DNA of 64,000 bases from Streptomyces sp. NBC_00335. GTDB lineage: Bacteria; Actinomycetota; Actinomycetes; Streptomycetales; Streptomycetaceae. The DNA is taken from assembly GCF_036127095.1 (NCBI RefSeq), contig NZ_CP108006.1, forward strand, positions 2,108,001-2,172,000. The letters run 5' to 3'. The number at the start of each line of letters is the position of its first letter. Within the stretch, counting starts at the first letter, position 1. Below the pieces are notes generated by a model, which worked only from the letters and a program-made list of their open reading frames with translations, had not been told where the DNA came from and did not search any database. The position numbers were made by a program, and so were the translations under genes. This document shows, piece by piece, positions 25,053 through 40,518 of this stretch.

Positions 25053-27020
25053 CTACGCCGTGTGCACTTCCAGGGCGGTCCGCACCGCGGATTCCAGGGC
25101 TCCCTCGATCCACGCGGGCTTGATGGAGGTGTGGCAGCCGGCGAAGTGCAGGTTGCCCTCGGCCTTGCGGACATGGGGGAAGAGCTCGGTGTGCTGGCCG
25201 GGCAGCAGTACGGACGCCTCGCCGTACGCGTACGGGTCGCGCATCCAGGACTGGGTGCGGCCGACGCCCGTGTAGAACACCTCGACGCGCTGCCCGAACA
25301 CCTCCTGGACTCCTGCGAGGGCGCGCGGGTAGCGCTCCTCGTCGTCCAGGGAGTCCCATTTCAGGGCGTCGTCCGACCAGCTGTAGGAGGCGAGGACGAC
25401 ACCGCCGGCGCTGCCCTCGACGGGGTAGGAGGGCTGGAACATGAAGCGGTTGGGGTTGTCCGTCACCGAGCCGCCGCCGATGACGCGGGCTGCCTCGGGC
25501 TGATCGCGGGTGACCACGCGGCTGGCGGCGTAGTGGGAGCGCTGGCCCTCGGAGACGTGGCCCTCGGGTACGGAGGAGTGGGCGCCCAGCAGGGATCCGT
25601 TCGCCGGGCTCTGCCCGGTCTGGTACTTGCGGTACAGCCCGGGCTGTACGGTCTCCAGCTCGCGCTTCCAGTCCGCCTCGTCGAACTCCCACCAGCGGCG
25701 GCTGAATTCGAGCAGCACCTTGGTGGCGGCGTCGTAGTGCAGCTCGGTGACCGCGCGCCGCTTGCCGTACGAGAGCGCGGGGGTGACGGGGATGTGGCGC
25801 AGCCCCGAGAAGGGGACGGTGATGATGGCGGTGTCGGCGGTGAAGGTCTCGCGCCGCACGGGGCTGCCGCCGCGGCCTTCGGAGACGGTCTCGACGGTGA
25901 CCTTGCCCTCGCCGTGGGTGATGCGGGTGGCACGGCGGTCGAGGCGCACGAGGTCCTTGACGCGCGCGTACATCGCGTCGGCCAGGGTGGCGGTGCCGCC
26001 GGGCAGTTCGTAGAAGGCGGTGTCGGGGCTGATCAGCGAGGCGCCGATGAAGCTGTGCACGAAGGCGAGGTGCAGGCGGGAGGTGAGGTTCTCGACCGTG
26101 CCGATCAGGTCGATGGTCCGCTCGTCGAGCTTGGCCTCCTCCGTCAGGAAGCGGTACATCGACATGTGTCCGTAGCGCTGGATGACGCGCGCCCAGCCCT
26201 CGACGAGTTCCTTGTCCTTCTTGCCCTCGATCTCCCCCCGTACGGGGGCGAAGGCGTCGCGGACGATCTGCGAGGCGGGCACGGACTCGTACGCCTGCGG
26301 CACTCCGAAGGAACGATTGAGCGCCTGCGGGGCGCGCGCGTAGTCGGCGCGGCGGACGCGGATGCCGTTGATGTGGATCCACGTCCGGTAGGCGGGACGG
26401 CCGGACGCGTCGACGTCGACCAGGTGGAAGCGCCTGCGCTTGAGGCCGAGATCGTCCATCAGTCCGGTCACCAGCGGATGGCTGTCCGGGATGCGCATCG
26501 CGCCGGCCTCGGCGTACTGCTTGGGGTCGGCGAAGGGCTGGGCCGCCTTCTCGTGGCCGCCGGTGCGGAAGGTCTTGATCCGGCCGCCCACCCGGTTGGC
26601 GTTGGCCTCGATGACGGTGACCTTGTGTCCGGCCTCGCGCAGGAGGTGCGCGGCGGTGAGGCCGGCCGGCCCGGCGCCGACGATCAGCACCTTCTTGCCG
26701 GGGCGGCGCGAGCGGGGCAGGCCGTTGTTCAGCAGGATGTCGGCGTAGCGCGGTACGAGCGGCTGGTCCTGGTCGTCCCGTACGAGGATGGCCCGGGCGA
26801 TCGTCAGGCAGGTGTCCCAGTCGGCGACCGCGACCCCGGGGACGGCCTGCGAGGTCTCGGCGGAGGTGACGGCCACCGTCAGCCCGCCGGCCGCCGCGAC
26901 GGCGGCCGCGCCGGCGATGACGGTACGGCGGGAGGGCCGGTGGGAGGCCGCCACTGCGGGCTCGCCGGAGGCTCCGGAAGCATCAGGGGTTTGGGAGTTG
27001 GCATCGGGATCCATGATCAT
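25053..27020 (-). CDS. Tat-exported flavin amine oxidase (L-amino-acid oxidase-like)
   Basis: 655-residue flavoenzyme of the monoamine oxidase superfamily. A twin-arginine signal ([17 protein letters not shown]) around 28-50 predicts folded export. The FAD dinucleotide fold is [18 protein letters not shown] near 110, with [15 protein letters not shown] as its second strand; the C-terminal FHFAGxHT-type block is [23 protein letters not shown]. The size and signal fit Streptomyces extracellular L-amino-acid or amine oxidases, which release H2O2 and ammonia; substrate is unknown. Start 27020 is picked to include the Tat motif; ATG 27014 is close. The frame upstream is not coding. Divergent from the YrhB-type gene. 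Confidence 0.85.
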
Positions 27021-27190
27021 GACCCAACTCTTGCCGCCCGCCCGGGCAGTGGAGACCAGAAGCCGCCCGCGCGGGCAAGGACCACCCGGACGTGCGAATC
27101 CCTCCGCGCGGCGCTGACGAACTGGGTTTCGTACGAGCGACCTTGAGGCCCCCGGGCACCTTCGGGAGCCCGAGCACTTCCCATGTCCCC

Positions 27191-27246: not shown

Positions 27247-28272
27247 ATGCTCACGTTGAACGAGGCCGTGGAAACGGCGCACCCTTACCTCGCACGGGCA
27301 TTCGCCCACGAGCCATGGACCGTCGTCGTCCAGCCGCAGCTGAGCGAGGAACACGACCTGGCCTGGATCATCAGGTACGTAACCCGGCAGCGCGTCGACA
27401 CCACCGCCGCGGCCGGCCCTCTCACCACGATGGTCCTGGTCCCCAAGGACGGCGCCCCGGTGCGCTTCCCTCCCTCGCACCTCCCCTTGGGCGAGTACTT
27501 CGCCTACGTTCGGCACGGCGGCTGGGACACCGCCGGCCTGGCGAGGACCGTGCGTGCCGAGCCGTGGCAGACGGCCCTGCAATGGCTGCTCACCACCTAT
27601 CGCGGCCTGGTCGAACTGGCAAGCACCGCACCGGTCGCCGAGGATGCCGGTACGTGGTTGTTCGCGTGCCGGTCGATCGAGCAGCCCGGCTCCCCGCGGA
27701 CCCCGATGCTGGCCGCTTCCGTGGTGGTGCCCAAGGACCTCGGGGTGCCGTTCCACCCGGCGGCCGATCATCCCTGGGGCGATGCTGCGGCATACACGCA
27801 GAACCCTGTGGAGCGTGATCCGGAGGGGCAGGCGCTGCGGCTGAACTCGCGTGGATGCGTGGTCACGGTGGCCGCCGCGATCGCGGGCCGGCCGTCCACG
27901 CCACTGCCGTGGCAGCCGGCGCACGAGGCGCCGGGGTGGTGGCAACTGCTGCTACGGCGCTACTTCCCGACGGCCGAGCAGGTGCGGTGTGCCGACTGGG
28001 ACGAGGTGATCACGCAGGCCGAGGAGTCCGGGCCCGGCACGCAGGGCGTGGTGTGGGTGCGGCGGGAGATCCGCGGGACCGAGGTCAGTGGCCACCTCGT
28101 GTACGCGCACAACAACAACGGAGCCGTGGTGTTCCTGGACGGCATGACCGGCGGTCTGGCGCGACTGGACACGGTCGGGCTGCGGGAGCTGGTCTTCGCC
28201 CGGATTCGCGCAGGCGCTCCACGACACGGCACGGCACGGCGGTTCAGGGGACGTGGCGGGCGTAGCGCCTGA
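27247..28272 (+). CDS. YrhB/Imm35-like protein with glutamine-deamidase-type toxin fold C-terminus
   Basis: 341 residues. Residues 1-95 look like the YrhB (Imm35) immunity family, with TVVVQPQLSEEHDLAWIIRY. Residues about 200-330 resemble the papain-fold protein-glutamine deamidase region of polymorphic toxins: GVVWVRREIRGTEVSGHLVYAHNN with a candidate catalytic His, then VVFLDGMTGG with a candidate Asp. No secretion signal is present, so it is probably a cytoplasmic domestic relative or immunity-toxin chimera rather than an exported effector. The expected catalytic Cys is not obvious, so activity is doubtful. ATG 27247 follows CAGGAACC. Confidence 0.6.
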   Translation: MLTLNEAVETAHPYLARAFAHEPWTVVVQPQLSEEHDLAWIIRYVTRQRVDTTAAAGPLTTMVLVPKDGAPVRFPPSHLPLGEYFAYVRHGGWDTAGLARTVRAEPWQTALQWLLTTYRGLVELASTAPVAEDAGTWLFACRSIEQPGSPRTPMLAASVVVPKDLGVPFHPAADHPWGDAAAYTQNPVERDPEGQALRLNSRGCVVTVAAAIAGRPSTPLPWQPAHEAPGWWQLLLRRYFPTAEQVRCADWDEVITQAEESGPGTQGVVWVRREIRGTEVSGHLVYAHNNNGAVVFLDGMTGGLARLDTVGLRELVFARIRAGAPRHGTARRFRGRGGRSA

Positions 28273-28582: not shown

Positions 28583-28671
28583 GAGCCCTTCGAACGCATT
28601 CCGAGATCTGTTCCGACGGCAGTTCAGGGACGTCGTATTCCGGCAAGGGGACCATGACCCGGTCACTCGGC

Positions 28672-28692
28672 CCCAGGGCCCAGGGCCCAGGG
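28672..28692. repeat. CCCAGGG heptamer in three tandem copies
   Basis: A perfect 7-base tandem (three copies, followed by partial CCC) in the 164-base gap between two divergent small genes. Each unit is itself nearly palindromic. Confidence 0.6.
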
Positions 28693-28746
28693 CCCCACGA
28701 ACTCGCCGGACCGGCGCGACCACCCCGAACAGCAAGTGAGGATCTC

Positions 28747-29595
28747 ATGACCCGCACCACCCCGCCCCGCCCGGTCGACGCCGAGGCCCTGTTCCCCGCC
28801 CTCGGCGACCACCGCCGTACCAGCACGCGCCTCCACCCGCGCCCCGGCTCCCCGAAGGCAGACGACAGCTCGGTGGCCGGCCCGCTCCTGTGGCCCGCCG
28901 ACGAACCGTGGCCCCTGTGCACCGCCGTCCATCGCAAGGGCAGAGGGCATCGTCTGTCAGACGTGCGCCTCCGGCGGCGGATCCTCGACGAGGCATGGCA
29001 CCGCGATCCCAAGTCGGGTCCCACCGATGCGGAACGCGAGGTCCTCGACACCCTCCGGCCCGGGCGGCACGCCCCGCAGATCGCGGACGCGGACCCGATT
29101 CCGCTGCTCGCCGCCGCGCAGCTCTTCGTACGCGACGTCCCCGACCTGACCGGACCGGACGGTTGTGACCTGCTCCAGGTCCTCTGGTGTCCTTTCGAAG
29201 CGCACGGCCCCGACCGGACCATCGAGGTCGTGCTGAAGTGGAGGCGCTCCCAGGACGTGGGCGAGGTCCTCCAAGTGATCCCTGAACCCGTGGTGGTGGG
29301 CAGGGACGGATGCGTCCCGAACACGTGCGTGCTCCACCCCGAACAAGTGGTGGAGCACGAGTACGAGGGTCTGCTGGACGAGGACCTGCAGGAGGCCATC
29401 GAAGCGTGGGAGGTGGGAGACGACGAAGAGCACGAAGAGGTCGAAGAGGGCGATGGCGCCTCCGGCTCCTCCGGTTTCGACACGTACGAGGAGGACGAGG
29501 TGACGTACCGGGGTGATCTGTCCATCGCGCCCGGCTGGAAGGTAGGCGGCTTCGCCTCGTGGCACCTCACCTACCCGGCGCTCAGGCGTGGTTGA
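28747..29595 (+). CDS. DUF1963/YwqG-like protein, probably truncated at its 3' end
   Basis: 282 residues. The family signature is seen in GPLLWPADEPWPLC near 45 and DLLQVLWCPFEAHGP near 139, followed by an acidic insert (about 215-245) and APGWKVGGFASWHLT near the end. Family members I recall run on past this last motif into a Cys-containing C-terminal block that is missing; here the chain ends in YPALRRG, and the stop codon falls inside the direct repeat at 29591. I infer that the insertion event that brought the RHS operon cut off the gene. ATG 28747 follows GTGAGGA. Function unknown; often found with polymorphic-toxin immunity genes. Confidence 0.65.
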   Translation: MTRTTPPRPVDAEALFPALGDHRRTSTRLHPRPGSPKADDSSVAGPLLWPADEPWPLCTAVHRKGRGHRLSDVRLRRRILDEAWHRDPKSGPTDAEREVLDTLRPGRHAPQIADADPIPLLAAAQLFVRDVPDLTGPDGCDLLQVLWCPFEAHGPDRTIEVVLKWRRSQDVGEVLQVIPEPVVVGRDGCVPNTCVLHPEQVVEHEYEGLLDEDLQEAIEAWEVGDDEEHEEVEEGDGASGSSGFDTYEEDEVTYRGDLSIAPGWKVGGFASWHLTYPALRRG

Positions 29596-29612
29596 CCGGG
29601 AGGTCGTCCGGG
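29591..29612 (-). repeat. Short direct repeat matching the 3' end of tdk (copy 3)
   Basis: 22 bases that match the tdk 3' end at 38611 with one substitution, in the same orientation. Read on the minus strand it encodes SPDDLPVN followed by two codons and TGA, the same frame and stop spacing as in the other copies. It supplies the stop codon of the DUF1963 gene and abuts the stop codon of the immunity-candidate gene. Confidence 0.75.
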
Positions 29613-29613
29613 C

Positions 29614-30084
29614 TCACCACGGAGCGGACTTCGGCACGCGCCACCACCAGACGTGGGCCTGCGGCGCCCGGCCGCGCGCGGTGCGCAACCACGGGTCGAG
29701 CGCTCCCGTCACGTCCTGGTCGGTGGCGGCCCCGAACCGGGCGTCCAGTGCGTCCAGCATCTCCGCCAGCTCCGCCCGCACCGGCGCAGGGAGGGCTTCC
29801 ATCACCTCTGCCAGCGCGTCCCTGCCGTCGAGGTCGTTCTCGTAGGCGCTGAACGGGTAGAACTCCTCCGGGCGGGGTCCCGCTTCCAGGATCCGCCCCA
29901 GGCGCTCCCACGCCTCGAACCGCCGACGTACGGAATACACCGGTTCCGTGACCGCCTCCCGCCGCTCCGGCGCGAGGCGGGCCCGTTCCAGCTCCAGCCT
30001 CTCCGCGTCGACGACGGCCACCGCCGCCACCGCCGCGGGCGACAACCGCGCCCACAAGGCGTCCGTCTCGGGGGTCCCGGTCAT
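29614..30084 (-). CDS. Candidate immunity protein for the RHS toxin
   Basis: 156-residue soluble, mostly helical acidic protein ending in HVWWWRVPKSAPW; no family recognised. It begins 7 bases after the RHS toxin stop; an ATG at 30099 even overlaps that stop. ATG 30084 is preferred because GAGG lies five bases upstream. Position as the last gene of a toxin operon, right after the variable C-terminal domain, is the classical place for the cognate immunity gene, and that is the basis for the call. Its stop codon touches the 22-base repeat. Expected partner: the last 104 residues of the RHS protein. Confidence 0.65.
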   Translation of the reverse strand: MTGTPETDALWARLSPAAVAAVAVVDAERLELERARLAPERREAVTEPVYSVRRRFEAWERLGRILEAGPRPEEFYPFSAYENDLDGRDALAEVMEALPAPVRAELAEMLDALDARFGAATDQDVTGALDPWLRTARGRAPQAHVWWWRVPKSAPW

Positions 30085-30091
30085 CCGTGCC

Positions 30092-33000
30092 TCATTCATT
30101 GATCTGTTCCAAGTAGTAGTCGTAGCCGCGGTCCGGTTGCATGAAGGTGCCGTTCTCCCCTTCGCGGATGAGCATCGTGCCGGTCGAATCGTCCCACCAG
30201 GCCCATCGCGGCGTACCCGAAGGCGTACTGCGCATCTTCACCCCCGGGTTGTTGGTCATCATGTCTTCCAGGTACTCCGGCACGTCCAGGTCGTCGACCC
30301 CGGGAATGCCCCGGTTCTTGACGTCGCCGTGTGCGGCGATCTTGTCCGCCAGCATGGGGAGGTTGCCCCCCTGACTCGCCGGGTCCGCCTCCCCGATCTT
30401 GCATTCCGGGGCCAGGCCGAGGTAATCGGTCCAGGTCAGCGGGTCGTTGACGTACGTGGCCGGGTTCGGCGCCGGCCCCAGGCCCAGCGGGTCCGGGCTG
30501 AGGTAGCGGGCGGTTTCGGGGTCGTAGGTGCGGAAGTAGTTGTGGTGCAGGCCGGTTTCGGGGTCGTAGTACTGGCCCGGAAAGCGGAGTGGCGTGTACG
30601 CGGTCGCGTCGCGGTTCCACGCGGTGGCGCCCCACAGCGTGGCCCGGACGCGCCAGGCGATCTCCCCGTCCTCGCCGACCAGTTCCCTCGGAGTGCCGAT
30701 CAGGTCCGTGACGATCGCGAAGAACCGCTCGTCCACCGTCTCCTGGGTGGCGTCGGCAACGATCCGCTCCGTCTGGGCCAGCGGGTGCAGCCCGTTGTGG
30801 TCCCAGGAGACGACCATCGAGCGGTCCTCCCCCTCCGGGTCACCGGAGGCCGCGGACGCCAAGGTCGTGGTCTGCTCGCACAGGATGCTCTCGTCCCACG
30901 TGAAGAGCGTTTCCTCGGCGACCCGACCGTCGTCGGCCAAACGCTGCTTCGACGTCCGTCGGCCCAGCGCGTCATGGCGGTAGCGCCAGCGGGTCCCGTC
31001 CGGAGTGACCACCCCGGTGAGCCTCCCGTCCGCGTCCCACGTGTAGCGCCAGGTGTCCGGCTTGCGGGAGAGCCGCGCCTTCTGGCGCAGGACCACACGA
31101 CCCCGGGCATCGTGCTCGTAGCGCACCGCGCCCGCTCGGACGATGCGGGTGCCTTCGTACGCGCGCTCCCCGCGGGCCTCGGCGCCCGGGTGGCCGTCGG
31201 GCCAGGAGGCGGCGCTCTGGTTGCCCGCCTCGTCGTAGGCGTACCGCTCCGTCCAGTCCTGCGCCCGGACGGCCGTGATCCGGCCCCCCGCGTCCCGTTC
31301 GAAGGTCCTGGCGCCCCCCAGGGCGTCCTCGATCCCCGCCAGTCGGCCGTCGGCTCGGTAGGTGTACCCCCGCCGCTGGAGGAGGGCGCCGTCCCGCCCC
31401 GCCACCTGCTGGCCGGTGATCCGGCCCAGCTCGTCGAACTGGTGGAGGACGGTGGCCGCGGTTCCGACCGTGCGGGAGACCTCGCGGCCCGCCGCGTCCC
31501 GGTCGAAGGCGACGGTGCGGCCCGACGTGACGAGCGTGCTGCGCCGGCCGGCCGCGTCGAAGGACCAGCGACTCTCCGCTCCCCCGGGGGTGGTCCGCGC
31601 CGCGCGCCGGTCCAGCTCGTCGTAGCCGTACGTGAGGGTGCGGCCGTCGACGGTCTCGGACAGGAGGCGGCCGTGGCGGTCCCTCAGCCGGGTCAGCCGC
31701 GTTCCGTCCGGGGTCGTCGCGGCGGCGAGTTCGTCGAAGACGTCGTACTCGTACTCCGTGACACCGTCCGCACTCCGTTTGAGGACGGTCTGGCCCAGTG
31801 CGTTGTACGCGAAGGTGACCGGCTCGGCCCCGCCGTCGGCCCGTGAGACGAGGCGCCCCGCCGCGTCGTGGCCGTACTCGACCGTGCGCCCGTCGAAGTC
31901 CGATTCCGAACGGAGCCGGCCGGCCTGATCGTAGGCGTAGTCCCAGGACATCCCCTGCGGGCCCGTCACCCGGGTCAGCCGCAGTTCGCCGTCGTAGTCG
32001 AACGCGTACCGCAGGCCGTCGGGCCCGGTCCGCGCCGCGAGCAGGTCGAAGTCGGTGTACTCGAAGACGGTCCTGCCGCCCAGCCCGTCCGTACGGCTGA
32101 GGCAGTTGCCCTCACCGTCGTACGTCCACGACTGCTCGCTGCCGTCGGGGGCGATCCGGCGGGCGGGCTTGCCCTCCACCGTCCACTCCATGCGGGTGAC
32201 GGCTCCCAGCGGGTCGGTGAATCGGACGACCCGGCCGAAGACGTCCCGCTCGAAGCGGCTGACGGCGCCCAGAGGGTCCGTCACACGGGACGCCAGGCCG
32301 GAGCTGTCGCATTCGACACGGGTGACCGCACCGAGTGCATCGGTCAGGGAGATCAGTTGCCCTCGATCGCCGTACTCGGCCGTCCTGCCGACTCCGGTGG
32401 GCGAGGTGACCGAGGTGCGGTTGCCCCGCTCGTCGTAGGTCTGGCGGAAGACCCGGCCGTCTTCGGCGACCACCTTCACCGGCAGGCCGAGGTCGTCGTA
32501 CTCCATCCGGCCCCGGCGCCCGTCCGGCCGGACGAGTTCCGTGAGCAGGCCGCGTGCGTCGTAGGTGCGTCGGGTGGTCAGACCGAGCGCGTCCGTTTCC
32601 GCCACCAGCCGGCCCTGGCGGTCGTACTCGTACCGCAGGGTGGCGCCCAGCTCGTCGGTCCGGGCGACCACACGGTAGGCCTCGTCGACCACGTAGCGGC
32701 GGGTGTGGCCCGAGCCCGTGGTGGCCGTGGTCACGCGCAGCCCGGTCCCGGGGTCCGCTTCGGAGTACGCGAGGGTGAGGGCCATGTGGCCGGCGGCGCC
32801 GCCTTCCGCGACGCAGCGGTCCCGCTCGTCGTAGGCGTACTCGTAGCGGCGGTCGTTCGTGTCGGTCCACGAGGTGATGCGGGCGCGCTCGTCGTAACCG
32901 AAGCGCAGGGGCAGACCGGATGAGTTGACGACCTCGGTGAGGTGACCGTCCGTGTAGCCGTACGCCACGACGCGCGGGCCGCCGGTCAGGTGGAGCGCGG

Positions 33001-34720
33001 TGATCCGGCCGTCGGCGGTCTCGAAGCGCAGGTGGTGGCCACCGCTGTGGGCGATGCCCAGCGGGGTGCCCTCGGCGTCGTACTCGAAGGTGATCGTGTT
33101 GCCGTTGCGGTCCTCGATGAAGTCGATCACCGCGTGTCCGTACGCGTCGCCCTCGCCCTCGCCCTCGCCGTCCGCGGGAGCGGTGAAGTGCCGGATGCGG
33201 CCCAGGGCCGGGTCGGTGACGGTGTAATCGCCTTCCGGAGTCCGGTCCAACGACCATCGCGGGCCGCTGGTGGCCAGCACCGGGACCCCGGGTGCCGGGT
33301 GCGGGTACGCGACGACCAGCCCGTCCGCGGTGACCAGGACGACGCCCTCGGGGTCGATCTCCAAGTGTTCGTCGACGGTGGAGGACCACGACGGACCGAA
33401 CCAACGGCCCCCCTTGTAACCGGACTCCGCACGGCGTGTGAAGGCCAGAGGCAGGGTGCCGGGCAGCACGATGTCCGTCTGAGGCAAGAACATCCGGCCG
33501 GTGGCGAGGTCGACCGGGTCGGTCCCGTCGCACTGCTTGTCGCAGTCCGGCTTGTCCCGCTGGTTCGGTCCGTCCTTGTCCAGGCCGGTGCGACCGGGGC
33601 CCTTGAGGTCGTCGGCGTGCTTGGCGGCGGAGCCGACCTTCTTCAGGGCGCCCATGCCCTTGGAACCGATGAGCTCCGGGATCAGCTTGCCGATGCCCTC
33701 GGAGGGGTCCTTCATGAACTCGTCGAGCATCTTCTTGCCCGCACCGAGCGGGTCGTTGGCCATGGTGACCAGACCCGCCGCCGTCGAGTTCAGGTTCGTG
33801 ACGTACTCCGCCGGATGCGTCAGGTTGTACGGATCCATCGGGTTCAGCGCCCGCGCGAAGTTCACGATCCCGGCCGTGCCCTTGATGACGCCGCCGGTCA
33901 GGTGCGTCTTGGCGAGGTCGAGGTAATCCATGCCGTCGCCGAGCTGCTTGGCGTACGAGGGCTTCGGCGGAGCCGCGTCACGTGCGGCGCGGACCGCCGT
34001 ACGGACGGTCTCCGCAACGTCGTTGCGCTGCTTGCGGGCGCTGTCGAGCTTGTCCTGCGCGGCCGTCGCGATCGCGGTCCCCGGATCGGTGAAGTTCTCC
34101 GAGGGGCGGGGCGGCAGCGGATCCTGCTTCGCCTTCAGCGCGTTGTTGTAGGTGTCGACCAGCTTGTTGTGCGCGGTGCGGGCCTCGCCGGAGACCTTCT
34201 TCGCCCGGTTGTACTCCTCCAGCGCCTCCTTGGCCTGGCCCTGCGCCCACTCCACGGTCTCCGCGAACCGGCCCATCGCGTCGGCGGCCTTCCCGAAGGC
34301 CTCGGACGCCTTGAACCAGCGCGGCGGCTCCTTCGCCACCGACTCCCGGAAGGAGTCCGCCGTCTTGCCCTTCAGGCCGTCCGGCTCGCCCATGCCCTTC
34401 AGGCCGTTGCCGACCTTGTCGAAGGACGCCTTGAAGTCGTTCAGGTGGGAGACCTGTGCGCGTATCTTCGACACGCTGCCGTAGACCAGCTTGTTCGGGT
34501 CCTCGGTCTGGCCCAGCTCCAGCTCGGCCACGTCCGCGCCGAGTTGATTGGCGGCGGAGCGGCTCTTGTCACGGATCCAGTCGCCCGCGTCGTCCAGGCC
34601 GACGTCCTCGGCGAAGTCGGCCGTCTTGTCGCCGGCCCACTCGACCGCGTCACCGACCTTCTCGGCACCCTTCTCGACGCCGTCCTCGATGACGTCCGGT
34701 ACGAAATCCCGCCAGCCCAT
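30092..34720 (-). CDS. RHS-repeat polymorphic toxin with T7SS-type N-terminus
   Basis: 1542 residues. About 1-300 are helical and WXG100-like (putative type VII-secreted N-terminus); a DUF6531-type strand region is near 395-455 (DPVDLATGRMFLPQTDIVLPG begins it); RHS/YD repeats fill about 500-1370 and form the usual cocoon shell. The core ends with PLRFPGQYYDPETGLHHNYF, then RYLSPDPLGL and DYLGLAP near 1438. The last 104 residues are the variable toxin, with AAHGDVKNRG, VKMRSTPSGTPRW and GTFMQPDRGYDYY; I do not recognise the family, though a compact RNase-like (BECR) fold is possible. The ATG overlaps the upstream stop by one base (TGATG). Role: contact- or secretion-dependent inhibition of competitors. 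Confidence 0.88.
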   Translation of the reverse strand: MGWRDFVPDVIEDGVEKGAEKVGDAVEWAGDKTADFAEDVGLDDAGDWIRDKSRSAANQLGADVAELELGQTEDPNKLVYGSVSKIRAQVSHLNDFKASFDKVGNGLKGMGEPDGLKGKTADSFRESVAKEPPRWFKASEAFGKAADAMGRFAETVEWAQGQAKEALEEYNRAKKVSGEARTAHNKLVDTYNNALKAKQDPLPPRPSENFTDPGTAIATAAQDKLDSARKQRNDVAETVRTAVRAARDAAPPKPSYAKQLGDGMDYLDLAKTHLTGGVIKGTAGIVNFARALNPMDPYNLTHPAEYVTNLNSTAAGLVTMANDPLGAGKKMLDEFMKDPSEGIGKLIPELIGSKGMGALKKVGSAAKHADDLKGPGRTGLDKDGPNQRDKPDCDKQCDGTDPVDLATGRMFLPQTDIVLPGTLPLAFTRRAESGYKGGRWFGPSWSSTVDEHLEIDPEGVVLVTADGLVVAYPHPAPGVPVLATSGPRWSLDRTPEGDYTVTDPALGRIRHFTAPADGEGEGEGDAYGHAVIDFIEDRNGNTITFEYDAEGTPLGIAHSGGHHLRFETADGRITALHLTGGPRVVAYGYTDGHLTEVVNSSGLPLRFGYDERARITSWTDTNDRRYEYAYDERDRCVAEGGAAGHMALTLAYSEADPGTGLRVTTATTGSGHTRRYVVDEAYRVVARTDELGATLRYEYDRQGRLVAETDALGLTTRRTYDARGLLTELVRPDGRRGRMEYDDLGLPVKVVAEDGRVFRQTYDERGNRTSVTSPTGVGRTAEYGDRGQLISLTDALGAVTRVECDSSGLASRVTDPLGAVSRFERDVFGRVVRFTDPLGAVTRMEWTVEGKPARRIAPDGSEQSWTYDGEGNCLSRTDGLGGRTVFEYTDFDLLAARTGPDGLRYAFDYDGELRLTRVTGPQGMSWDYAYDQAGRLRSESDFDGRTVEYGHDAAGRLVSRADGGAEPVTFAYNALGQTVLKRSADGVTEYEYDVFDELAAATTPDGTRLTRLRDRHGRLLSETVDGRTLTYGYDELDRRAARTTPGGAESRWSFDAAGRRSTLVTSGRTVAFDRDAAGREVSRTVGTAATVLHQFDELGRITGQQVAGRDGALLQRRGYTYRADGRLAGIEDALGGARTFERDAGGRITAVRAQDWTERYAYDEAGNQSAASWPDGHPGAEARGERAYEGTRIVRAGAVRYEHDARGRVVLRQKARLSRKPDTWRYTWDADGRLTGVVTPDGTRWRYRHDALGRRTSKQRLADDGRVAEETLFTWDESILCEQTTTLASAASGDPEGEDRSMVVSWDHNGLHPLAQTERIVADATQETVDERFFAIVTDLIGTPRELVGEDGEIAWRVRATLWGATAWNRDATAYTPLRFPGQYYDPETGLHHNYFRTYDPETARYLSPDPLGLGPAPNPATYVNDPLTWTDYLGLAPECKIGEADPASQGGNLPMLADKIAAHGDVKNRGIPGVDDLDVPEYLEDMMTNNPGVKMRSTPSGTPRWAWWDDSTGTMLIREGENGTFMQPDRGYDYYLEQINE

Positions 34721-35283
34721 CAGTGACCGTCCCCGTCACGCTTCGCCTGCTCCAGCAGGTCCTTCAGCGAACCGATCCGCCCGCTCGAGCTGACCGTGTC
34801 CCCCGTCTCCGACCAGGTCTTCTTGATGTCCTCGGCACTCTTCTCGAAGGACTCCGGGCTGTAATCGGGCTTGTAGACGTCCGCGGAGAAGATGTCCCCC
34901 CACGGCTTCTTCTCGATCTCGTCCTCACTGGCGTGCGGATTGCCGTACGCCGCGTTCGCGACCACCCGGAACGTGCCGTGGAGGTACTGCTCCTCCTCCC
35001 ACACCGTGCCCGCCGCGATCCCGAGCGACTGCGCCAGCGTGCTCGCGTCCTGCACCAGGCTGCGTACGCCCCACTCCCAGCGCTCGCAGAAATCCTCGAA
35101 ATCGGTGGCCAGACCCGCGTGCCCGGCCTCCATCCCCGTCATCGCCAGATTCTCGAAGCCCGCACCCATCGAGGCACCGGCCGCGTCCCCCGACTCCCGC
35201 AGCTCCCCGATCGCCGCCCGCAGACCGTCCTGAATGTTCTTGACCGCCGCCGGCGAAACCTCAAGATCCCCGTTGCCCGCCAT
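34720..35283 (-). CDS. WXG100-like helical protein, RHS operon
   Basis: 187-residue protein with a long helical N-terminal half resembling ESX/WXG100 helpers (FEDFCERWEWGVRSLVQDA gives the WxW turn near 70). No TM. It overlaps the genes on both sides by one base (TGATG junctions), so it is made in step with the SseB-like and RHS proteins. In actinobacterial toxin loci such proteins are taken to accompany the effector through a type VII apparatus; no secretion genes are in this window. Specific role is inference. Confidence 0.75.
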   Translation of the reverse strand: MAGNGDLEVSPAAVKNIQDGLRAAIGELRESGDAAGASMGAGFENLAMTGMEAGHAGLATDFEDFCERWEWGVRSLVQDASTLAQSLGIAAGTVWEEEQYLHGTFRVVANAAYGNPHASEDEIEKKPWGDIFSADVYKPDYSPESFEKSAEDIKKTWSETGDTVSSSGRIGSLKDLLEQAKRDGDGH

Positions 35284-35693
35284 CAGACGGCCTCCCCACG
35301 ACCGACCAGATCCACGGCATTCGCGTCCGGAACGATCCCCGCCACCGGCGGGAAGAACATCGACCCGTCCTCGTCCGCCACGTTCACGACCACACCCGCC
35401 GGAGCATCCGCCAACGGAACCACCTCATCGACCAGGCGCGCACCCAGCACCGAGAGGAACTCCCACTCCCGGCCGGCCTCCGCCTCACCGCGCGCCGCCG
35501 CGAACCGGGCCAAAGCCTCCTCATCGGTGAACGCGTAGATCCAGCGGATGCCCCCCGACACCGCCGACATCAGACCACCGTCAGCACCATCGGCCAGCGG
35601 AACCAGCAGGACCGCCCGCCGGAACTCCCCCACCAGACGGCCGGAATCACCCAGCCCGTCCCGAATCGCCGCGATCTCTGCGGTCAGTTCCAT
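35283..35693 (-). CDS. SseB-like protein, first gene of the RHS operon
   Basis: 136 residues with an SseB N-terminal-type fold: VLLVPLADGADGGLM, IRWIYAFTDEEALARF and GARLVDEVVPLADAPAGVVVN are typical strands. SseB-family proteins occur widely beside Streptomyces WXG100/RHS toxin genes; function not established. ATG 35693 is preferred because GGAGGGG lies 9 bases upstream, whereas ATG 35702 abuts it. Its TGA overlaps the ATG of the next gene by one base. The promoter should lie in the 90 bases up to the tdk-like fragment. Confidence 0.78.
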   Translation of the reverse strand: MELTAEIAAIRDGLGDSGRLVGEFRRAVLLVPLADGADGGLMSAVSGGIRWIYAFTDEEALARFAAARGEAEAGREWEFLSVLGARLVDEVVPLADAPAGVVVNVADEDGSMFFPPVAGIVPDANAVDLVGRGEAV

Positions 35694-35784
35694 GGCTTGC
35701 ATCCCCTCCGGCGCCAGGCAGCGTCCTGGAAGAACACGCTATCGGGAGCCCCACCGGTTCCCTCAGACCCCCCGGGACACCCTC

Positions 35785-35850
35785 TCAGCCGGGGTTGACC
35801 GGGAGGACGTCCGGGGAGAGGGCGCCCGCGCGGGCCGGCGCCGAGGTCAC
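35785..35850 (-). pseudogene. Fragment of thymidine kinase 3' end (copy 2 of the direct repeat)
   Basis: On the minus strand this encodes 21 residues plus TGA that match the last 21 residues of the tdk product at 16 positions (shared TSA, then AGALSPDVLPVN). At DNA level 35794-35837 match 38611-38654 at 43 of 44 bases. It has no start and no rest of the gene, and lies in frame behind the histidine kinase stop. It is best read as a leftover of an insertion or duplication that used the tdk end. Confidence 0.75.
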
Positions 35851-35886
35851 GATGCGGGCCGGGAGGGCGTCCGGTGCCCGGTGTTC

Positions 35887-37122
35887 TCAGGGGGCGGGGA
35901 CCGGGACGGCGGCGGTCAGGACGGCGCCCTCTCCGGGCGCCGACTCGATGGTCAGGGTCCCGCCGAGCTGGCGCATCCGGACGCGCATCGCCGGGACGCC
36001 GTGTCCGCGCACGCCGGACGGGACCTCGGGGAGGGCGGTGGGGTCGAACCCGTGTCCGTTGTCGGCCACGTCGAGGACGACCTGATCGTCGAGCCGGGTG
36101 AGGGTGAGCGCGGCGGTGGTGGCACCGGAGTGCTCCCGTACGTTGGCCAGCGCGCCCTGTGCGATGCGCAGCAGCGCGGACTGCACGCGTTCCGGCAGCG
36201 GGGTGACGTGCCCGCCCGCGTCGATGTGGACGCGCACCGTGAGTCCGGCGCCGGACTCCCGTTCGGCGAGGGCGTGCAGCGCGGCGTCGAGGCCACTGCC
36301 GTGCGCGAGGTCGGCGGGTGCGAGGTCGTGCACGAAGCGGCGGGCCTCGGCGAGGTTGAGCTCGGCGATGGACGCGGCGGTGCGGACGTGACCGCGGGCC
36401 TTGGCCGGGTCGGTGTCCCAGGTCCGGTCGGCGGCCTGGAGCAGCATCCGCTGGCTGGACAGGCCCTGGGCGAGCGTGTCGTGGATCTCCATGGACAGCC
36501 GCTGGCGTTCGGCGAGGGTACCTTCGCGGCGCTCGGTGGCGGCGAGCTCGCGGCGGGTGCGGACGAGGTCGTCGATGAGGGCGTGCTGGCGGGCCGCTTG
36601 CCGCTGCATGTGGAGGAAGACGGCGGTGGTGAGCGCGGAGACGGCGGCCGGGCCGATCACCAGGTCGAGGTTGAAGCGGGGGGCCAGCGTCAGCTGCGCG
36701 AAGATCACGAGGAGCGTGAGGAACACGACGAGGACGTACGCGGCGACGGGCGGCAGGGTGCGCAGCACGGAGTAGAAGAGGGGGACCGCGACCCACGCGA
36801 AGCTGGGCGCCAATAGGACGAGGACGGCCCACGCGGTGACGACCATCCCCAGCCAGGCCAGCCGGGGTGCCGGGGGCCACGGCCTGCCGCCACGGCCCGG
36901 GGGCGCCTTGGCCTCCGTGGCGGGGCCCAGCAGGTAGAGGACGGCGAGCACGACGGCGAGGGCGATCACCCAGGGGGCACGGGCCTCCTGGGTGTGGCGC
37001 TGGACGAAGCGGACCATCGAGGTGCCGACCAGCACGAAGAAGGTGACGCGCATGACCAGCGCCAGCCACCGGTCGTCCGGATCACCGCCGGAGCCGGAGG
37101 GGTCGCTGGGGTCGGGCCGCAC
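35887..37122 (-). CDS. NarL-type sensor histidine kinase, SenS-like, without an adjacent response regulator
   Basis: About 411 residues. Five to six TM helices occupy roughly 20-165; a HisKA_3 dimerisation domain has the phosphorylated His in ERQRLSMEIHDTLAQGLSS near 222; the HATPase_c domain shows DVADNGHGFDP and GHGVPAMRVRMRQLGG. GTG 37122 follows AGAGG; GTG/TTG codons up to 37158 are alternatives. Divergent from an HbpS-like heme-binding protein, the arrangement of the HbpS-SenS redox sensor in Streptomyces reticuli as I recall it. The SenR-type regulator expected downstream is missing; instead the tdk fragment and the RHS operon follow. Confidence 0.82.
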   Translation of the reverse strand: MRPDPSDPSGSGGDPDDRWLALVMRVTFFVLVGTSMVRFVQRHTQEARAPWVIALAVVLAVLYLLGPATEAKAPPGRGGRPWPPAPRLAWLGMVVTAWAVLVLLAPSFAWVAVPLFYSVLRTLPPVAAYVLVVFLTLLVIFAQLTLAPRFNLDLVIGPAAVSALTTAVFLHMQRQAARQHALIDDLVRTRRELAATERREGTLAERQRLSMEIHDTLAQGLSSQRMLLQAADRTWDTDPAKARGHVRTAASIAELNLAEARRFVHDLAPADLAHGSGLDAALHALAERESGAGLTVRVHIDAGGHVTPLPERVQSALLRIAQGALANVREHSGATTAALTLTRLDDQVVLDVADNGHGFDPTALPEVPSGVRGHGVPAMRVRMRQLGGTLTIESAPGEGAVLTAAVPVPAP

Positions 37123-37161
37123 GTGCACCTCTTGACATAGGGTCCCCGAAGTGGACAAACA

Positions 37162-37184
37162 GTCACATTGTCGCCGAGTGTGAC
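37162..37184. promoter_or_regulatory. GTCACA-N11-TGTGAC dyad in the hbpS-like/kinase intergenic region
   Basis: Perfect 6-base arms around an 11-base spacer, about 40 bases from the kinase start and 164 bases from the HbpS-like start. It is a plausible operator for control of the divergent genes; the binding protein is unknown. Confidence 0.4.
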
Positions 37185-37347
37185 CGTACCGGGGTCAACC
37201 GATCGGATGACCCGCGTGTCCCCCCTCCTGCCCGCCGCAGGCACCCGGCCAGTCGACGGGTCAGGGCCGCCGCCGGGCCCAGGATTGATGTCAGAGCGGG
37301 GCAGCCGGAACGGACGGCCCCCACCCCTCATCAAGGAGCCGGTACAC

Positions 37348-37920
37348 ATGCAGCAGGTCAAGAAGGTCTCCCAGCGCACCCGTGCGATCACCGGCGGCGC
37401 CCTGGTCGCCGCCCTCGCCCTCGGCGGCTTCGGCGCCTACGCCGCCAGCGCCGCCCCGGCCGCCCAGGCCCCGGCCGCCCAGGCCGATGCGAAGGCGGAT
37501 GCCAAGAACAAGAACCTGACCCAGTCGACCCACCTGACCATCGACGCCGCCACGAGGGCCGCGCAGACGGCGCTCGACGCCGCGAAGAAGGAGAACCAGC
37601 GCGTCACCGTCGCGGTGGTGGACCGCAACGGCAACACCATCGTCACGCTGCGCGGCGACGGCGCCGGCCCGCAGTCCTACGACGCCGCCCAGCGCAAGGC
37701 CTACACCGCCGTGTCCTGGAACTCCCCCACCTCGGTGCTCGCCGGCCGCCTCGCCCAGACGCCGACCCTGAAGGACATCCCCGGCACCCTCTTCCTCGGC
37801 GGTGGCGCCCCGGTCACCGCGAAGAACGCCCCGATCGCGGGCATCGGTGTCGCGGGCGCGCCCTCCGGCGACCTGGACGAGAAGTTCGCCCAGGCCGGTG
37901 TCGCCGCGCTGAACAAGTAG
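37348..37920 (+). CDS. Secreted HbpS/GlcG-family heme-binding protein
   Basis: 190 residues: signal peptide about 1-43 (ALVAALALGGFGAYAASA, then Ala/Pro-rich), followed by a GlcG/HbpS domain (about 55-190) with LTIDAATRAAQTALDAAKKE, VAVVDRNGNTIVTLRGDGA, SYDAAQRKAYTA and GIGVAGAPSGDLDEKFAQAG. HbpS of S. reticuli binds heme and iron outside the cell and modulates the kinase SenS; here the divergent kinase gene suggests the same pairing. ATG 37348 follows AAGGAG. The ankyrin gene starts 52 bases later and may be cotranscribed. Confidence 0.85.
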   Translation: MQQVKKVSQRTRAITGGALVAALALGGFGAYAASAAPAAQAPAAQADAKADAKNKNLTQSTHLTIDAATRAAQTALDAAKKENQRVTVAVVDRNGNTIVTLRGDGAGPQSYDAAQRKAYTAVSWNSPTSVLAGRLAQTPTLKDIPGTLFLGGGAPVTAKNAPIAGIGVAGAPSGDLDEKFAQAGVAALNK

Positions 37921-37972
37921 CAGCGCAGGCCTGACGGCGCGACGCGCCCTGACCCACCCGAGGAGGACCCCC

Positions 37973-38569
37973 ATGCCCCCTGCCGACCGAGACCTGCTGG
38001 CCGCCGCCGGCGAAGGCGGCGCCGACGCCGTGCGCGCGGCGCTGGCCGCCGGCGCCGACATCGAGGCCCGCGACGAACACCGCCGCACCCCGCTCCTGCT
38101 CGCCGCCCTCGGTGACCACGTGGCGGCGGCCGAGGTCCTCGTCGGTGCCGGCGCCGACCCGAACGCCCAGGACGACCGCGACGACAGCCCCTGGCTGGTC
38201 ACCGGTGTCACCGGCAGCGTCCGGATGATGCGTACCCTGCTCCCGGCCCGCCCCGACCTCACCCGGCTCAACCGCTTCGGCGGCATCGCCCTGATCCCCG
38301 CCGCCGAACGCGGCCACGTCGACTACGTGCGGGCCCTGCTCCGGGAAACCGACATCGACGTCGACCACGTCAACCGGCTCGGCTGGACCGCACTGCTCGA
38401 AGCCGTCATCCTCGGCGACGGCGGCCGCGCCCATCAGGAGATCGTGGAACTGCTCATCACCGCCGGCGCCACGGCGCACCTTCCGGACGGCGACGGCGTG
38501 ACCGCGCTCGAACACGCGGAACGCCGCGGCTTCACACAGATCGCCGACCTGCTCAGGGCCGTACGGTAG
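37973..38569 (+). CDS. Ankyrin-repeat protein
   Basis: 198 residues with about five ankyrin repeats covering the whole chain (for example DEHRRTPLLLAALGDHVAAA, GHVDYVRALLRE and GVTALEHAERRGFTQIADLL). No signal peptide or TM; cytoplasmic protein-binding scaffold. In Streptomyces, ankyrin genes next to catalase or heme-related genes are common, and here it follows the HbpS-like gene; its partner is unknown. ATG 37973 follows GGAGGA. It ends 32 bases from the convergent tdk stop; no strong hairpin is seen between. Confidence 0.85.
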   Translation: MPPADRDLLAAAGEGGADAVRAALAAGADIEARDEHRRTPLLLAALGDHVAAAEVLVGAGADPNAQDDRDDSPWLVTGVTGSVRMMRTLLPARPDLTRLNRFGGIALIPAAERGHVDYVRALLRETDIDVDHVNRLGWTALLEAVILGDGGRAHQEIVELLITAGATAHLPDGDGVTALEHAERRGFTQIADLLRAVR

Positions 38570-38601
38570 GAACGACCACGGGACGGGCAAGGGGCTCGCG
38601 A

Positions 38602-39252
38602 TCAGACCGAGTTGACCGGGAGGACGTCCGGGGAGAGGGCGCCCGCGTGGGCCGAGGCGCTCGTCATCTGCTTGCGGTGGTGGCGACGGCACAGGACCTC
38701 GTACCCGATCTCCCCCGCCGGGCGGTTCACGTCGCCGACCACGACCTGCTCTCCCTCGACCACCATTTCGCCGCCCACCGTACGGGCGTTGTGCGTGGCG
38801 CGGGCTCCGCACCAGCACAAGGCCTCCACCTGGAGCTGCTCCAGGCGGTCCGCCAGCTCGATCAGGCGCTGGGAGCCGGGGAAGAGCTTCGTGCGGAAGT
38901 CCGTCGTGATGCCGAAGGCGAAGACGTCCATGTCGAGGTCGTCCACGATGCGCGCCAACTGGTCGATCTGGGCAGGGGCCAGGAACTGGGCCTCGTCCAC
39001 GATCACGTAGTCCGCCTTGCCGCCCTTGGTGAGCTGGGCGACCACGTACGCGTACAGGTCCATGCCCTCCGGCGCCTCCACCGCCTCCGTCACCAGGCCG
39101 AGGCGGGAGGAGAGCTTCCCCTCCCCCGCCCGGTCGTCACGGGTGAAGATCACGCCCTGCAGACCCCGCGCGTCACGGTTGTGGGCGATCTGGAGCGCCA
39201 GCGTGCTCTTTCCGCAGTCCATCGTTCCGGAGAAGAACACCAGCTCGGGCAT
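38602..39252 (-). CDS. tdk: Thymidine kinase (type II)
   Basis: Phosphorylates thymidine to dTMP in the pyrimidine salvage pathway. The 216-residue protein carries the P-loop GTMDCGKST (8-16), the DEAQFL Walker B at about 87, the FRTKLFPGS and LELADR-type (LIELADRLEQL) lid region, and Zn-ribbon cysteines (CWCGARATHNAR and CRRHH), all typical of the human TK1-like type II family. The ATG at 39252 places the P-loop correctly. The gene starts 60 bases from the stop of the alkaline-phosphatase-fold gene upstream, so may be cotranscribed with it. Its 3' end, coding AGALSPDVLPVN, is the source of the repeat seen at 35794 and 29591. Confidence 0.92.
   Translation of the reverse strand: MPELVFFSGTMDCGKSTLALQIAHNRDARGLQGVIFTRDDRAGEGKLSSRLGLVTEAVEAPEGMDLYAYVVAQLTKGGKADYVIVDEAQFLAPAQIDQLARIVDDLDMDVFAFGITTDFRTKLFPGSQRLIELADRLEQLQVEALCWCGARATHNARTVGGEMVVEGEQVVVGDVNRPAGEIGYEVLCRRHHRKQMTSASAHAGALSPDVLPVNSV
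38611..38654 (-). repeat. tdk: Direct repeat, resident copy inside the tdk 3' end (copy 1)
   Basis: Matches 35794-35837 at 43 of 44 bases (the first 37 are identical) and 29591-29612 at 21 of 22. It is coding here and ends two codons before the tdk stop, so it is taken as the original sequence. Distances to the copies are 2.8 kb and 9.0 kb. Confidence 0.8.
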
Positions 39253-39312: not shown

Positions 39313-40518
39313 TCAGGAGCGGATTTCGAGCAGCGGGACGAGCTGCTCGGCCGGGGTCATGGAGCCGTGCATGCCGGCGAGGGCCGACTCGTTGGGCTCG
39401 GCGCGTGAGGCGGTGATCGCCACGTCGGCCTGGGCGGCGGCGATCACGTCGCCGATGCGGCCGAGGACCCGCTCGTCGCATTCTCCCGGTGCCCCGAACC
39501 AGCCCAGTTCCAGGGCTTCCGCCCGGCTCGCGACCCAGAAGCGGTCGCCGAGGACCTCGCGCCAGACGGTGAGGACGTCGGCCTCGGCGCCCGGTACGGC
39601 GTACACGTGCCGGGCCCGGCCCTCGCCGCCCAGCAGGGCCACGCCCGCGCCGAGTTCCCAGTCGTCGTCGTAGTCGATGCGGGAGTCCTCGTCGAAGGGG
39701 ACGTCCACCATGCCGTGGTCGGCGGTCACGTACAGCGCGGTGCGCGGCGGCAGTTGCTCGGCGAGCCGCTGGACGAGGCGGTCCACGTACATGAGCTGGC
39801 CGCGCCAGGCGTCGGAGTCGACGCCGTGCCGGTGGCCGGCTCCGTCGAGCTCGCTGTAGTACGTGTAGACGAGCGAGCGGTCACCGGCCGCGAGCCGCTC
39901 GGCCGCGAGGTCCATGCGCTCCTCGCCGGTCATCCGGCCGAGGAAGGTGCCGCCGCTCAGGGCGACCTTCGTCAGCGGGGTGGTCTGGAAGGCCGGCGAG
40001 GACACCTGCGCGGTGGCCACCCCGGCCGCGTCCGCCCGCTGGAAGACGGTCGGGTACGGCTGCCAGGGCTTGGGCGGGGTCCACGGGTGCCAGCGGAGCT
40101 GGTTCATCAGTTCGCCGGTGGCGGGATTGCGCACGGTGTACCCGGGCAGGCCGTGCCGCGCGGGCGGCAGGCCGGTGCCGACGGAGGCCAGCGAGGTGGC
40201 GGTGGTCGCCGGGAAGCCCGCGGTGATCGGGCGGCCGGTACCGCCGCGCGAGGTGGAGAGGAGGGAAGTGAGGTACGGGGCCTCGTCCGGGTGGGCCTTG
40301 ATCTGCTCCCAGCCCATGCCGTCGACCAGGAACACGCAGTTCCGGTCGGCCGGGCTCAGCTCGGCGATCGAGGCCTCGAAGCCGGGTACGCCCTGGCCGG
40401 CCACGAGGGTGGGCAGCAGGTCGGCGAGCGAGCCGGTGCCGTAGTGCGGCACCGGGGCGCCGGCCAGGTCCAGCAGCTCGGGCTCGTCCTGCCAGCTCTG
40501 CGCGGCGGAGTACGCCAT
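39313..40518 (-). CDS. Alkaline phosphatase-fold nucleotide pyrophosphatase/phosphodiesterase family protein
   Basis: 401 residues of the alkaline phosphatase superfamily. Metal and nucleophile elements are visible as FLVDGMGWEQI (Asp near 64), PITAGFPATTATSLASVGTG (candidate Thr nucleophile near 100), YYSELDGAGHRHG (near 217-229) and VTADHGMVDVP (near 265). No signal peptide, hence cytoplasmic, hydrolysing a phosphodiester or pyrophosphate of unknown identity. Its ATG overlaps the TGA of the DUF5998 gene by one base, so the two are coupled. Conserved upstream of tdk in Streptomyces as far as I recall. Confidence 0.85.
   Translation of the reverse strand: MAYSAAQSWQDEPELLDLAGAPVPHYGTGSLADLLPTLVAGQGVPGFEASIAELSPADRNCVFLVDGMGWEQIKAHPDEAPYLTSLLSTSRGGTGRPITAGFPATTATSLASVGTGLPPARHGLPGYTVRNPATGELMNQLRWHPWTPPKPWQPYPTVFQRADAAGVATAQVSSPAFQTTPLTKVALSGGTFLGRMTGEERMDLAAERLAAGDRSLVYTYYSELDGAGHRHGVDSDAWRGQLMYVDRLVQRLAEQLPPRTALYVTADHGMVDVPFDEDSRIDYDDDWELGAGVALLGGEGRARHVYAVPGAEADVLTVWREVLGDRFWVASRAEALELGWFGAPGECDERVLGRIGDVIAAAQADVAITASRAEPNESALAGMHGSMTPAEQLVPLLEIRS

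What the first reader, a model, noticed from the sequence alone, without database searches (positions are those of the whole stretch)
29591..38654. Three direct copies of the tdk 3' end bracket an RHS toxin operon and a heme-sensor block
Seen directly: 38611-38654 (coding, end of thymidine kinase) matches 35794-35837 at 43 of 44 bases and 29591-29612 at 21 of 22. All copies have the same orientation and encode SPD-x-LPVN followed by exactly two codons and TGA. One interval (29.6-35.8 kb) contains the RHS operon and nothing else; the other (35.8-38.6 kb) holds the kinase, HbpS-like and ankyrin genes. Inference: cargo has repeatedly integrated at the tdk end, with each element restoring the reading frame. 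No integrase remains, so the mechanism is open.
Basis: partly seen in the sequence, partly recalled or inferred. Interest (0 to 1): 0.8.

Follow-up and report, generated by a model that had tools for sequence, protein, structure and literature searches.

The report
Toxin-gene hotspot inside thymidine kinase
In some Streptomyces bacteria a DNA-inserting enzyme appears to slot foreign DNA, often toxin genes, repeatedly into the start of the thymidine kinase gene, leaving cut, decaying copies of that gene behind; the three repeats in this window are best read as one working copy and the last scraps of two cut ones.

Summary
The repeats are real: three exact copies of the 22-base core, all here, in a 9.0-Mb genome. 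The inferred insertion site is wrong; repeated insertion is right. In relatives the extra copies are tdk fragments that begin at the Walker A codons: 25 segments in 14 genomes start at residue 12-17, and 18 of them run to residue 213 or beyond. Related arm sequences stand just before the cut (26 junctions). Six genomes keep an orphan tdk 5' end of about 17 codons before a complete second tdk, and a large serine recombinase starts 36-37 bp from the displaced copy in three genomes. The deduced attP is an inverted repeat around AC. So the attachment site is tdk codon 17, and elements bring a replacement tdk. Window copies B (19 codons) and A (8 codons) are best read as eroded tails of displaced tdk genes: ISL-66 shows the immunity-gene end found at copy A still followed by an arm and an almost full tdk fragment. 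Parts of all three window cargo modules recur in tdk slots of other species. Accretion and gene-restoring insertion are known; I did not find this target, recombinase clade and whole-gene replacement in print.

The parts
38602..39252 (-). Intact thymidine kinase gene (tdk), 216 aa; its last 22-44 bases are repeat copy C
   Evidence: PF00265 E 5e-25; the one tdk match in this genome in the survey
39178..39230 (-). Predicted attB inside tdk (Walker A codons); predicted AC crossover at 39204-39203
   Evidence: Homology of AP-93 and G012 to the window flank stops at base 39203; sequence read; displaced copies in relatives start here
35785..35857 (-). Repeat copy B: tail of a displaced tdk (19 recognisable codons plus two codons and stop)
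   Evidence: tblastn residues 196-214, 84%; in strain AP-93 the same HK-plus-tail block exists with the tail decayed further
29582..29612 (-). Repeat copy A: last 8 recognisable codons plus two codons and stop of an older displaced tdk, fused to the end of the immunity ORF
   Evidence: ISL-66 has the same immunity-ORF end followed by 119 bp ending in the arm, then an almost full tdk fragment
35887..37158 (-). Histidine kinase (HisKA_3, HATPase_c), cargo of slot 1
   Evidence: HK plus tail B aligns with AP-93 at 86% DNA identity, 84% protein
37348..37920 (+). HbpS-like protein, slot 1
   Evidence: PF03928; in the arrays searched only a weak partial match (38%, E 3e-4) in G384
37973..38569 (+). 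Ankyrin-repeat protein, slot 1
   Evidence: Ank families; no counterpart in the arrays searched
35283..35702 (-). SseB-like small protein, first gene of the RHS operon, slot 2
   Evidence: PF07179 just under its cut-off; same position after tdk in G082, G125, G177, G320
34720..35283 (-). 187-aa small protein of the RHS operon
   Evidence: no Pfam hit; conserved with the operon
30092..34720 (-). RHS polymorphic toxin with T7SS signal domain, 1542 aa
   Evidence: PF21725, PF05593, PF20148
29614..30099 (-). Probable immunity ORF, 161 aa
   Evidence: no Pfam hit; position after the RHS gene; 3' end shared with ISL-66
28654..29595 (+). Unknown protein of a third cargo module
   Evidence: no Pfam hit; homologue next to the intact tdk in ISL-66 (85.5% DNA) and in a G226 slot
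27247..28272 (+). Papain-fold toxin 1 (Gln_amidase) / Imm35 protein, third cargo module
   Evidence: PF15644, PF15567; 90% DNA identity to a tdk slot of AP-93
39313..40518 (-). Phosphodiesterase/phosphatase-like gene, conserved flank upstream of tdk (label from recall; no family search)
   Evidence: found upstream of tdk in all 15 regions compared
25053..27086 (-). Amine-oxidase-like gene (label from recall; no family search), conserved far flank; follows a displaced tdk directly in G082 and G012

Best explanation
tdk is the attachment site of a family of mobile elements with a large serine recombinase (LSR). SHOWN by comparison: displaced tdk copies begin at the Walker A codons behind a related arm; some elements carry a complete second tdk at one end and the LSR at the other; five arrays hold two to seven displaced copies with varied cargo. 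INFERRED: the LSR recombines attP with attB at codon 17 (AC crossover). Insertion cuts tdk into an orphan 5' piece of about 17 codons and a displaced rest without a start; the element's own complete tdk keeps thymidine kinase in place and offers a fresh attB, so further elements can stack. Later the orphan is lost, displaced copies decay, and slots are reshuffled by recombination between tdk repeats. In the window the LSR, arms and orphan are gone and only tails A and B remain, separating three cargo modules (histidine kinase block; RHS toxin operon with its probable immunity gene; glutamine-deamidase toxin module).
For: (1) 25 partial tdk segments in 14 of the 30 multi-match genomes start at residue 12-17. 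(2) Related arms at 26 junctions (22, 4); AC follows at 25, the exception being G046:10058. AC is also tdk's own codon 17, so it marks where tdk homology stops and is not independent proof of the crossover; the arms at G046:15556 and 21082 fit the consensus less well. (3) Six orphan / complete-tdk arrangements with similar left ends. (4) Where both ends are known, the attP arms match as inverted repeats at 17, 17, 18 and 16 of 26; 3, 2, 1 and 20 of 100,000 shuffles reach this. (5) The LSR starts 36-37 bp from the displaced copy in G012, G256 and G309, and a 21-residue LSR stub lies 37 bp away in G301. (6) AP-93 (G256): a 20-kb element with orphan, second tdk, LSR and displaced tdk; homology to the window flank stops at 39203, the predicted crossover. 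(7) Control: 7 of the 16 loci with more distant LSRs (36-42%) were fetched; none has tdk in its 8-kb stretch. (8) G301: upstream gene and displaced tdk are both nearest to G145 (93.1, 92.5%), the intact tdk to G190 (94.3%); G256 likewise (upstream gene and displaced copy nearest the window, 97.0 and 92.3%; intact tdk nearest G012's, 89.9%). (9) Transitional form of window copy A in ISL-66. (10) Broken displaced copies lie farther from the intact gene (within-array permutation p 0.0017, five arrays; retained length p 0.016, six arrays).
Against: The window keeps no arm, LSR or orphan, so its own history is inferred from relatives. No excision or integration was observed. G082, G125, G320, G177, G208 and G046 have an intact tdk without an orphan, and no RHS slot has an LSR, which needs extra steps. 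In G174 the LSR is not at the element end, and in G301 it is split and mostly elsewhere. In G012 the 147 kb between the two ends holds core genes, so that copy is rearranged. In G309 both tdk copies are divergent and native or foreign status is unclear; in G376 it is the displaced copy that resembles element-borne tdk. The element-borne tdk genes are not one clade (AU p 6e-62). HbpS and ankyrin genes have no good counterpart in other arrays.
Confidence: 0.88

Rival explanations
1. Insertion at the tdk 3' end: each element carries the last 22-44 bases of tdk and restores the end of the reading frame.
For: In the window alone only 3' ends are repeated.
Against: In relatives the copies extend to residue 12-17 and stop there behind an attP-like arm; orphan 5' ends exist; homology breaks at 39203, inside the 5' part.
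Confidence: 0.03
2. Homologous recombination alone: tdk-RHS units spread between strains by crossing over in tdk, duplicating it, without a dedicated recombinase.
For: The tdk 3' end and RHS operon form one homologous block in several species; slot order differs between the window and AP-93; the element-borne tdk genes are not one clade; no RHS slot has an LSR.
Against: The fixed start at the Walker A codons, the related arms and the inverted-repeat attP, and the adjacent LSR, are not expected. Probably a secondary process.
Confidence: 0.08
3. The repeats are a conserved functional signal (for example a terminator or regulatory motif) rather than gene remnants.
For: Core conserved at 22 bases while the flanks diverge.
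Against: All three are in frame as a tdk C-terminus, longer copies are tdk, and AP-93's copy next to the amine-oxidase gene is decaying.
Confidence: 0.01

Closest known systems
Islands integrated in the 5' end of dusA (PMC4482086; abstract and passages seen)
   Same: Integration near the 5' end of a conserved enzyme gene; the island supplies new gene sequence; a remnant 5' end is left; mosaic cargo; over 200 bacteria.
   Different: There an integrase family (tyrosine type by recall) and a new 5' end for the resident gene; here a serine recombinase, a complete second gene, and arrays of up to seven displaced copies.
Accretion of AICEs in Streptomyces (PMC9513070; abstract start and passages seen)
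   Same: Successive elements at one site in Streptomyces, with decayed remnants and empty sites in other strains.
   Different: The accretion case shown there is at tRNA-Arg among conjugative elements; the AP-93 element shows no FtsK/TraB-type match and the target is tdk ('thymidine' is absent from that text).
SCC elements of staphylococci (recalled, nothing read)
   Same: Serine recombinases, accretion at one protein-coding gene, elements without recombinase genes at the same site.
   Different: Recalled target is the 3' end of rlmH; here the 5' part of tdk and a whole replacement gene.
Large serine integrases of actinophages, such as Bxb1 (best solved-structure relative 9iu2, 'Integrase', E 7e-37; that it is Bxb1 is recalled)
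   Same: Domain order Resolvase, Recombinase, zinc ribbon; inverted-repeat attP (the latter for phage integrases by recall).
   Different: At most 31.9% identity to the phage integrases listed; no close relative in IMG/VR.

Membership tests
Elements integrated by a large serine recombinase | LSR gene with Resolvase, Recombinase and zinc-ribbon domains | tested here: met
   In the relatives: L055:18039-19727, PF00239, PF07508, PF13408. In the window's own genome no close relative.
Elements integrated by a large serine recombinase | attP an imperfect inverted repeat around a short core shared with attB | tested here: met
   Arms 16-18 of 26 identical around AC in the four genomes with both ends known.
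Elements integrated by a large serine recombinase | LSR gene adjacent to an attachment site | tested here: met
   36-37 bp in G012, G256, G309; stub in G301; not at the end in G174.
Elements integrated by a large serine recombinase | Integration and excision by the enzyme shown | not testable with these tools
   Needs an experiment or reads across the circle junction.
AICE (actinomycete integrative and conjugative element) | FtsK/TraB-type transfer protein within the element | tested here: not met
   PF01580 has no match at E <= 0.001 in the AP-93 element span (G256:C33 about 273.6-293.9 kb).
dusA-type gene-restoring islands | Island supplies replacement sequence for the interrupted gene and leaves a remnant | tested here: met
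   Orphan 5' end plus complete second tdk in G012, G256, G174, G190, G238, G301.
dusA-type gene-restoring islands | Tyrosine-type integrase at the site (type recalled) | tested here: not met
   No PF00589 match near the tdk arrays of G000, G046, G082, G125; G012 has three at 2584-2586 kb, inside the rearranged span. Other array genomes were not searched for it.
SCC elements | ccr recombinases and rlmH target | not tested
   Compared from recall only.
Integron cassette arrays | IntI integrase and attC sites | not tested
   Considered as an analogy only.

The most novel reading that the evidence does not exclude
tdk is an open-ended cassette platform: because each insertion regenerates a functional tdk with a fresh attB, toxin-immunity operons bounded by tdk sequence and an attP arm, lacking their own recombinase, are captured in trans by the tdk-specific LSR. 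The array would be a position-ordered record of past toxin arsenals, the displaced tdk copies serving as clocks, an integron-like system run by a serine recombinase.
Probability: 0.25. Interest if true: 0.82.

Novelty: new variant of a known kind. Interest (0 to 1): 0.62.

Why it matters
It names a target gene for serine-recombinase islands that I did not find described, with a deduced att pair and a recombinase clade in Streptomyces, and shows islands that bring a complete replacement of the enzyme gene they cut. The displaced copies give an ordered record of how competing strains swap toxins, immunity genes and biosynthetic genes at one address, so turnover of polymorphic toxins may become datable. 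It also offers a candidate integration tool at a gene that can be followed by a simple phenotype.

Tried and rejected
Rejected: a 3'-end attachment site (fragments in relatives start at residues 12-17). Rejected: one origin of all element-borne tdk genes (AU test p 6e-62); only pairs such as G012/G256 (92/88) and G190/G301 (100/98) group. Rejected: G012 as an intact 147-kb element; its interval holds core genes and its left flank is collinear with the window for only 2.6 kb. An amine-oxidase locus scan (80 loci kept of 106) gave tdk sequence within the fetched flank in only 3 of 80; in the arrays read whole the two genes lie farther apart. The ten single-copy genomes fetched share none of the window's cargo downstream of tdk, but also lack the amine-oxidase gene there (one 56-bp match aside), so they are not strict empty-site partners. 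In one search HbpS and HK hits under 40 and 50% identity and RHS pieces under 300 bp were dropped. No attP arm remains in the window. IMG/VR held no close LSR. Literature: seven searches and passages of five papers showed no tdk-targeting element; 'thymidine' does not occur in the main text of PMC3218068, PMC12924846, PMC9513070 or PMC10083194; PMC4482086 was not searched for it; supplements were not read. Junctions were picked by a pattern at tdk codon 18, so copies that lost this stretch are not among the 26. Partial copies not starting at 12-17 exist: eroded pieces, G041 (residues 5-214, with an overlapping piece on the other strand) and G208:C69 (19-83, 65%), not followed up. Sixteen of the 30 multi-match genomes show no copy starting at 12-17; of these G166 has an arm and G190 and G238 have orphans. 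Several of the single core matches are an unrelated gene.
Full report
Observation. The 22-base core occurs three times, exactly and in one orientation, in the window and nowhere else exactly in the 9.0-Mb genome. Copy C is the end of an intact tdk (216 aa, PF00265). Copy B matches the last 19 codons recognisable by tblastn; copy A matches 8.

What the copies are. Among 150 genomes of the genus, 24 have the core with at most one mismatch and five have it more than once (G000, G012, G046, G082, G125); several of the single matches are an unrelated gene. Reading those loci showed that the extra copies in the relatives are not short repeats: they are tdk fragments that begin at the Walker A codons. 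A survey of 392 genomes found tdk in 379 and more than one match in 30 (a lower bound, since the window's own short tails do not register). In the detailed search of those 30, 25 partial segments in 14 genomes start at residue 12-17; 18 of the 25 run to residue 213 or beyond. Adding one genome with an arm (G166) and two with orphans (G190, G238), 17 genomes carry a diagnostic junction.

The junctions. Upstream of codon 17 of the displaced copies stands a related arm, roughly TGGYGGATGSYCNAGYAARAGG, followed by AC at 25 of 26 junctions. AC is tdk's own codon, so it marks where tdk homology stops rather than proving the crossover; two G046 arms fit less well. Six genomes (G012, G256, G174, G190, G238, G301) keep the first 17 tdk codons as an orphan followed, after a short stretch, by a complete tdk beginning MSELVFF; their left ends resemble each other. 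Left and right arms form an inverted repeat: 17, 17, 18 and 16 of 26 bases in G012, G256, G174, G301, reached by 3, 2, 1 and 20 of 100,000 shuffles; in the G012 region 68 of 173,947 positions reach 17 of 26. Homology of AP-93 and G012 to the window's upstream flank stops at window base 39203, the second base of the predicted AC crossover.

The recombinase. A 562-aa large serine recombinase (PF00239, PF07508, PF13408) starts 36-37 bp from the displaced tdk in G012, G256 and G309. Of 392 genomes, four have it at 80% identity or more (G012, G256, G309, G174) and a fifth, G301, in two pieces at 82 and 70%. G301 also has a 21-residue stub next to its displaced copy; in G174 the gene lies inside a 93-kb span. 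Of 16 loci with more distant homologues I fetched seven (36-42%); none has tdk in its 8-kb stretch. In a protein search at E <= 1e-100, 12 of 47 clusters have 75% identity or more; the eight of them with an organism name are Streptomyces; the next is at 45%. The clearest whole element is the 20-kb one of AP-93; the smallest is G309, tdk - LSR - displaced tdk. The AP-93 element has no FtsK/TraB match; of ten of its 18 called ORFs, Pfam named five (DUF6928, exonuclease, NUDIX, methyltransferase, HAD) and PHROGs one more as a transcriptional regulator.

Foreign tdk. In G301 the upstream gene and the displaced tdk are both nearest to G145, while the intact tdk is nearest to G190, another element carrier; G256 shows the same pattern. 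The tree separates EL_G301 from DI_G301 with strong support. In the 10 genomes tested besides G301, own intact and displaced copies differ by 6 to 25%. Against a simple picture: in G309 both copies are divergent, and in G376 the displaced copy is the one nearest to element-borne tdk (G376's own locus appears twice in that comparison), as if an element's tdk had itself been displaced.

Cargo. Slots hold RHS operons in the same position after tdk (G082, G125, G177, G320), RHS genes in other slots (G046, G226, AP-93), a papain-fold toxin module (AP-93), and biosynthetic genes: P450, MFS, ATP-grasp, PALP and hexapeptide proteins in ISL-43, and a condensation domain, aconitase-like and homocitrate-synthase-like proteins in APSN-46.1. 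In the window, the RHS operon, the 28.7-kb gene, the 27.2-kb toxin and the histidine kinase with tail B each have a counterpart in a tdk slot of another species. For HbpS only a weak partial match in G384 and for the ankyrin gene nothing was found (right frame; the HbpS query was out of frame).

Why the window shows only tails. In ISL-66 an immunity ORF with the same 3' end as the window's is followed by 119 bp ending in the arm, then an almost full tdk fragment; in the window the same end is joined directly to the last tdk codons. In AP-93 the kinase plus tail B block lies next to the amine-oxidase gene with the tail decayed further, so slot order has changed. Across five arrays, broken displaced copies lie farther from the intact tdk than whole ones (permutation p 0.0017; retained length over six arrays p 0.016; classes typed by hand), as expected if new elements enter at the intact gene.

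Verdict. A serine-recombinase attachment site in tdk, used repeatedly, is well supported by comparison; the window is a decayed example. Gene-restoring insertion (dusA, PMC4482086, abstract and passages) and accretion in Streptomyces (PMC9513070, abstract start and passages) are known kinds; the target, the LSR clade and the whole-gene replacement were not found in the searches listed. Integration itself is untested.

Noticed in passing
G012:C1:2483000-2629900 (L055, L223-L229, L056): The span between the element's tdk end and its LSR end holds core genes (names from sequence recall: homoserine dehydrogenase, threonine synthase, prfA, ATP synthase operon), suggesting a large rearrangement with a breakpoint in the element.
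   Followed up: partly
G174:C7:136800-138620: A protein of about 1326 aa with several FtsK/SpoIIIE domains (EccC-like by recall) lies within the 93-kb span between intact and displaced tdk.
   Followed up: no
L099:7300-8095: Downstream of a displaced tdk in AP-93, an orphan piece reading like the end of an RHS core (DPLGL) with a toxin-like tail and a possible immunity ORF.
   Followed up: no
L213:487-9014 and L049:11303-18967: ISL-43 and ISL-66 share biosynthetic-type genes (P450, MFS, hexapeptide transferase and others) as tdk-slot cargo.
   Followed up: partly
L101:13-4780: APSN-46.1 carries a condensation-domain protein plus aconitase-like and homocitrate-synthase-like genes beside a displaced tdk.
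   Followed up: no
L253 about 7620 and L254 about 3900: In G174 and G301 the arm beside the LSR is followed by the same non-tdk sequence (AAAAAGATCCATTCAGACC), perhaps a secondary site or an internal att relic.
   Followed up: no
G309:C28:299952-303123: A very small element: intact tdk, antisense LSR, displaced tdk, with almost nothing else between.
   Followed up: partly
G004:C1:982506 (L036): A tdk-like tail (SPDVLPVNHT, stop) on another contig than the intact tdk of that genome (C2:4918330), preceded by non-tdk sequence.
   Followed up: no
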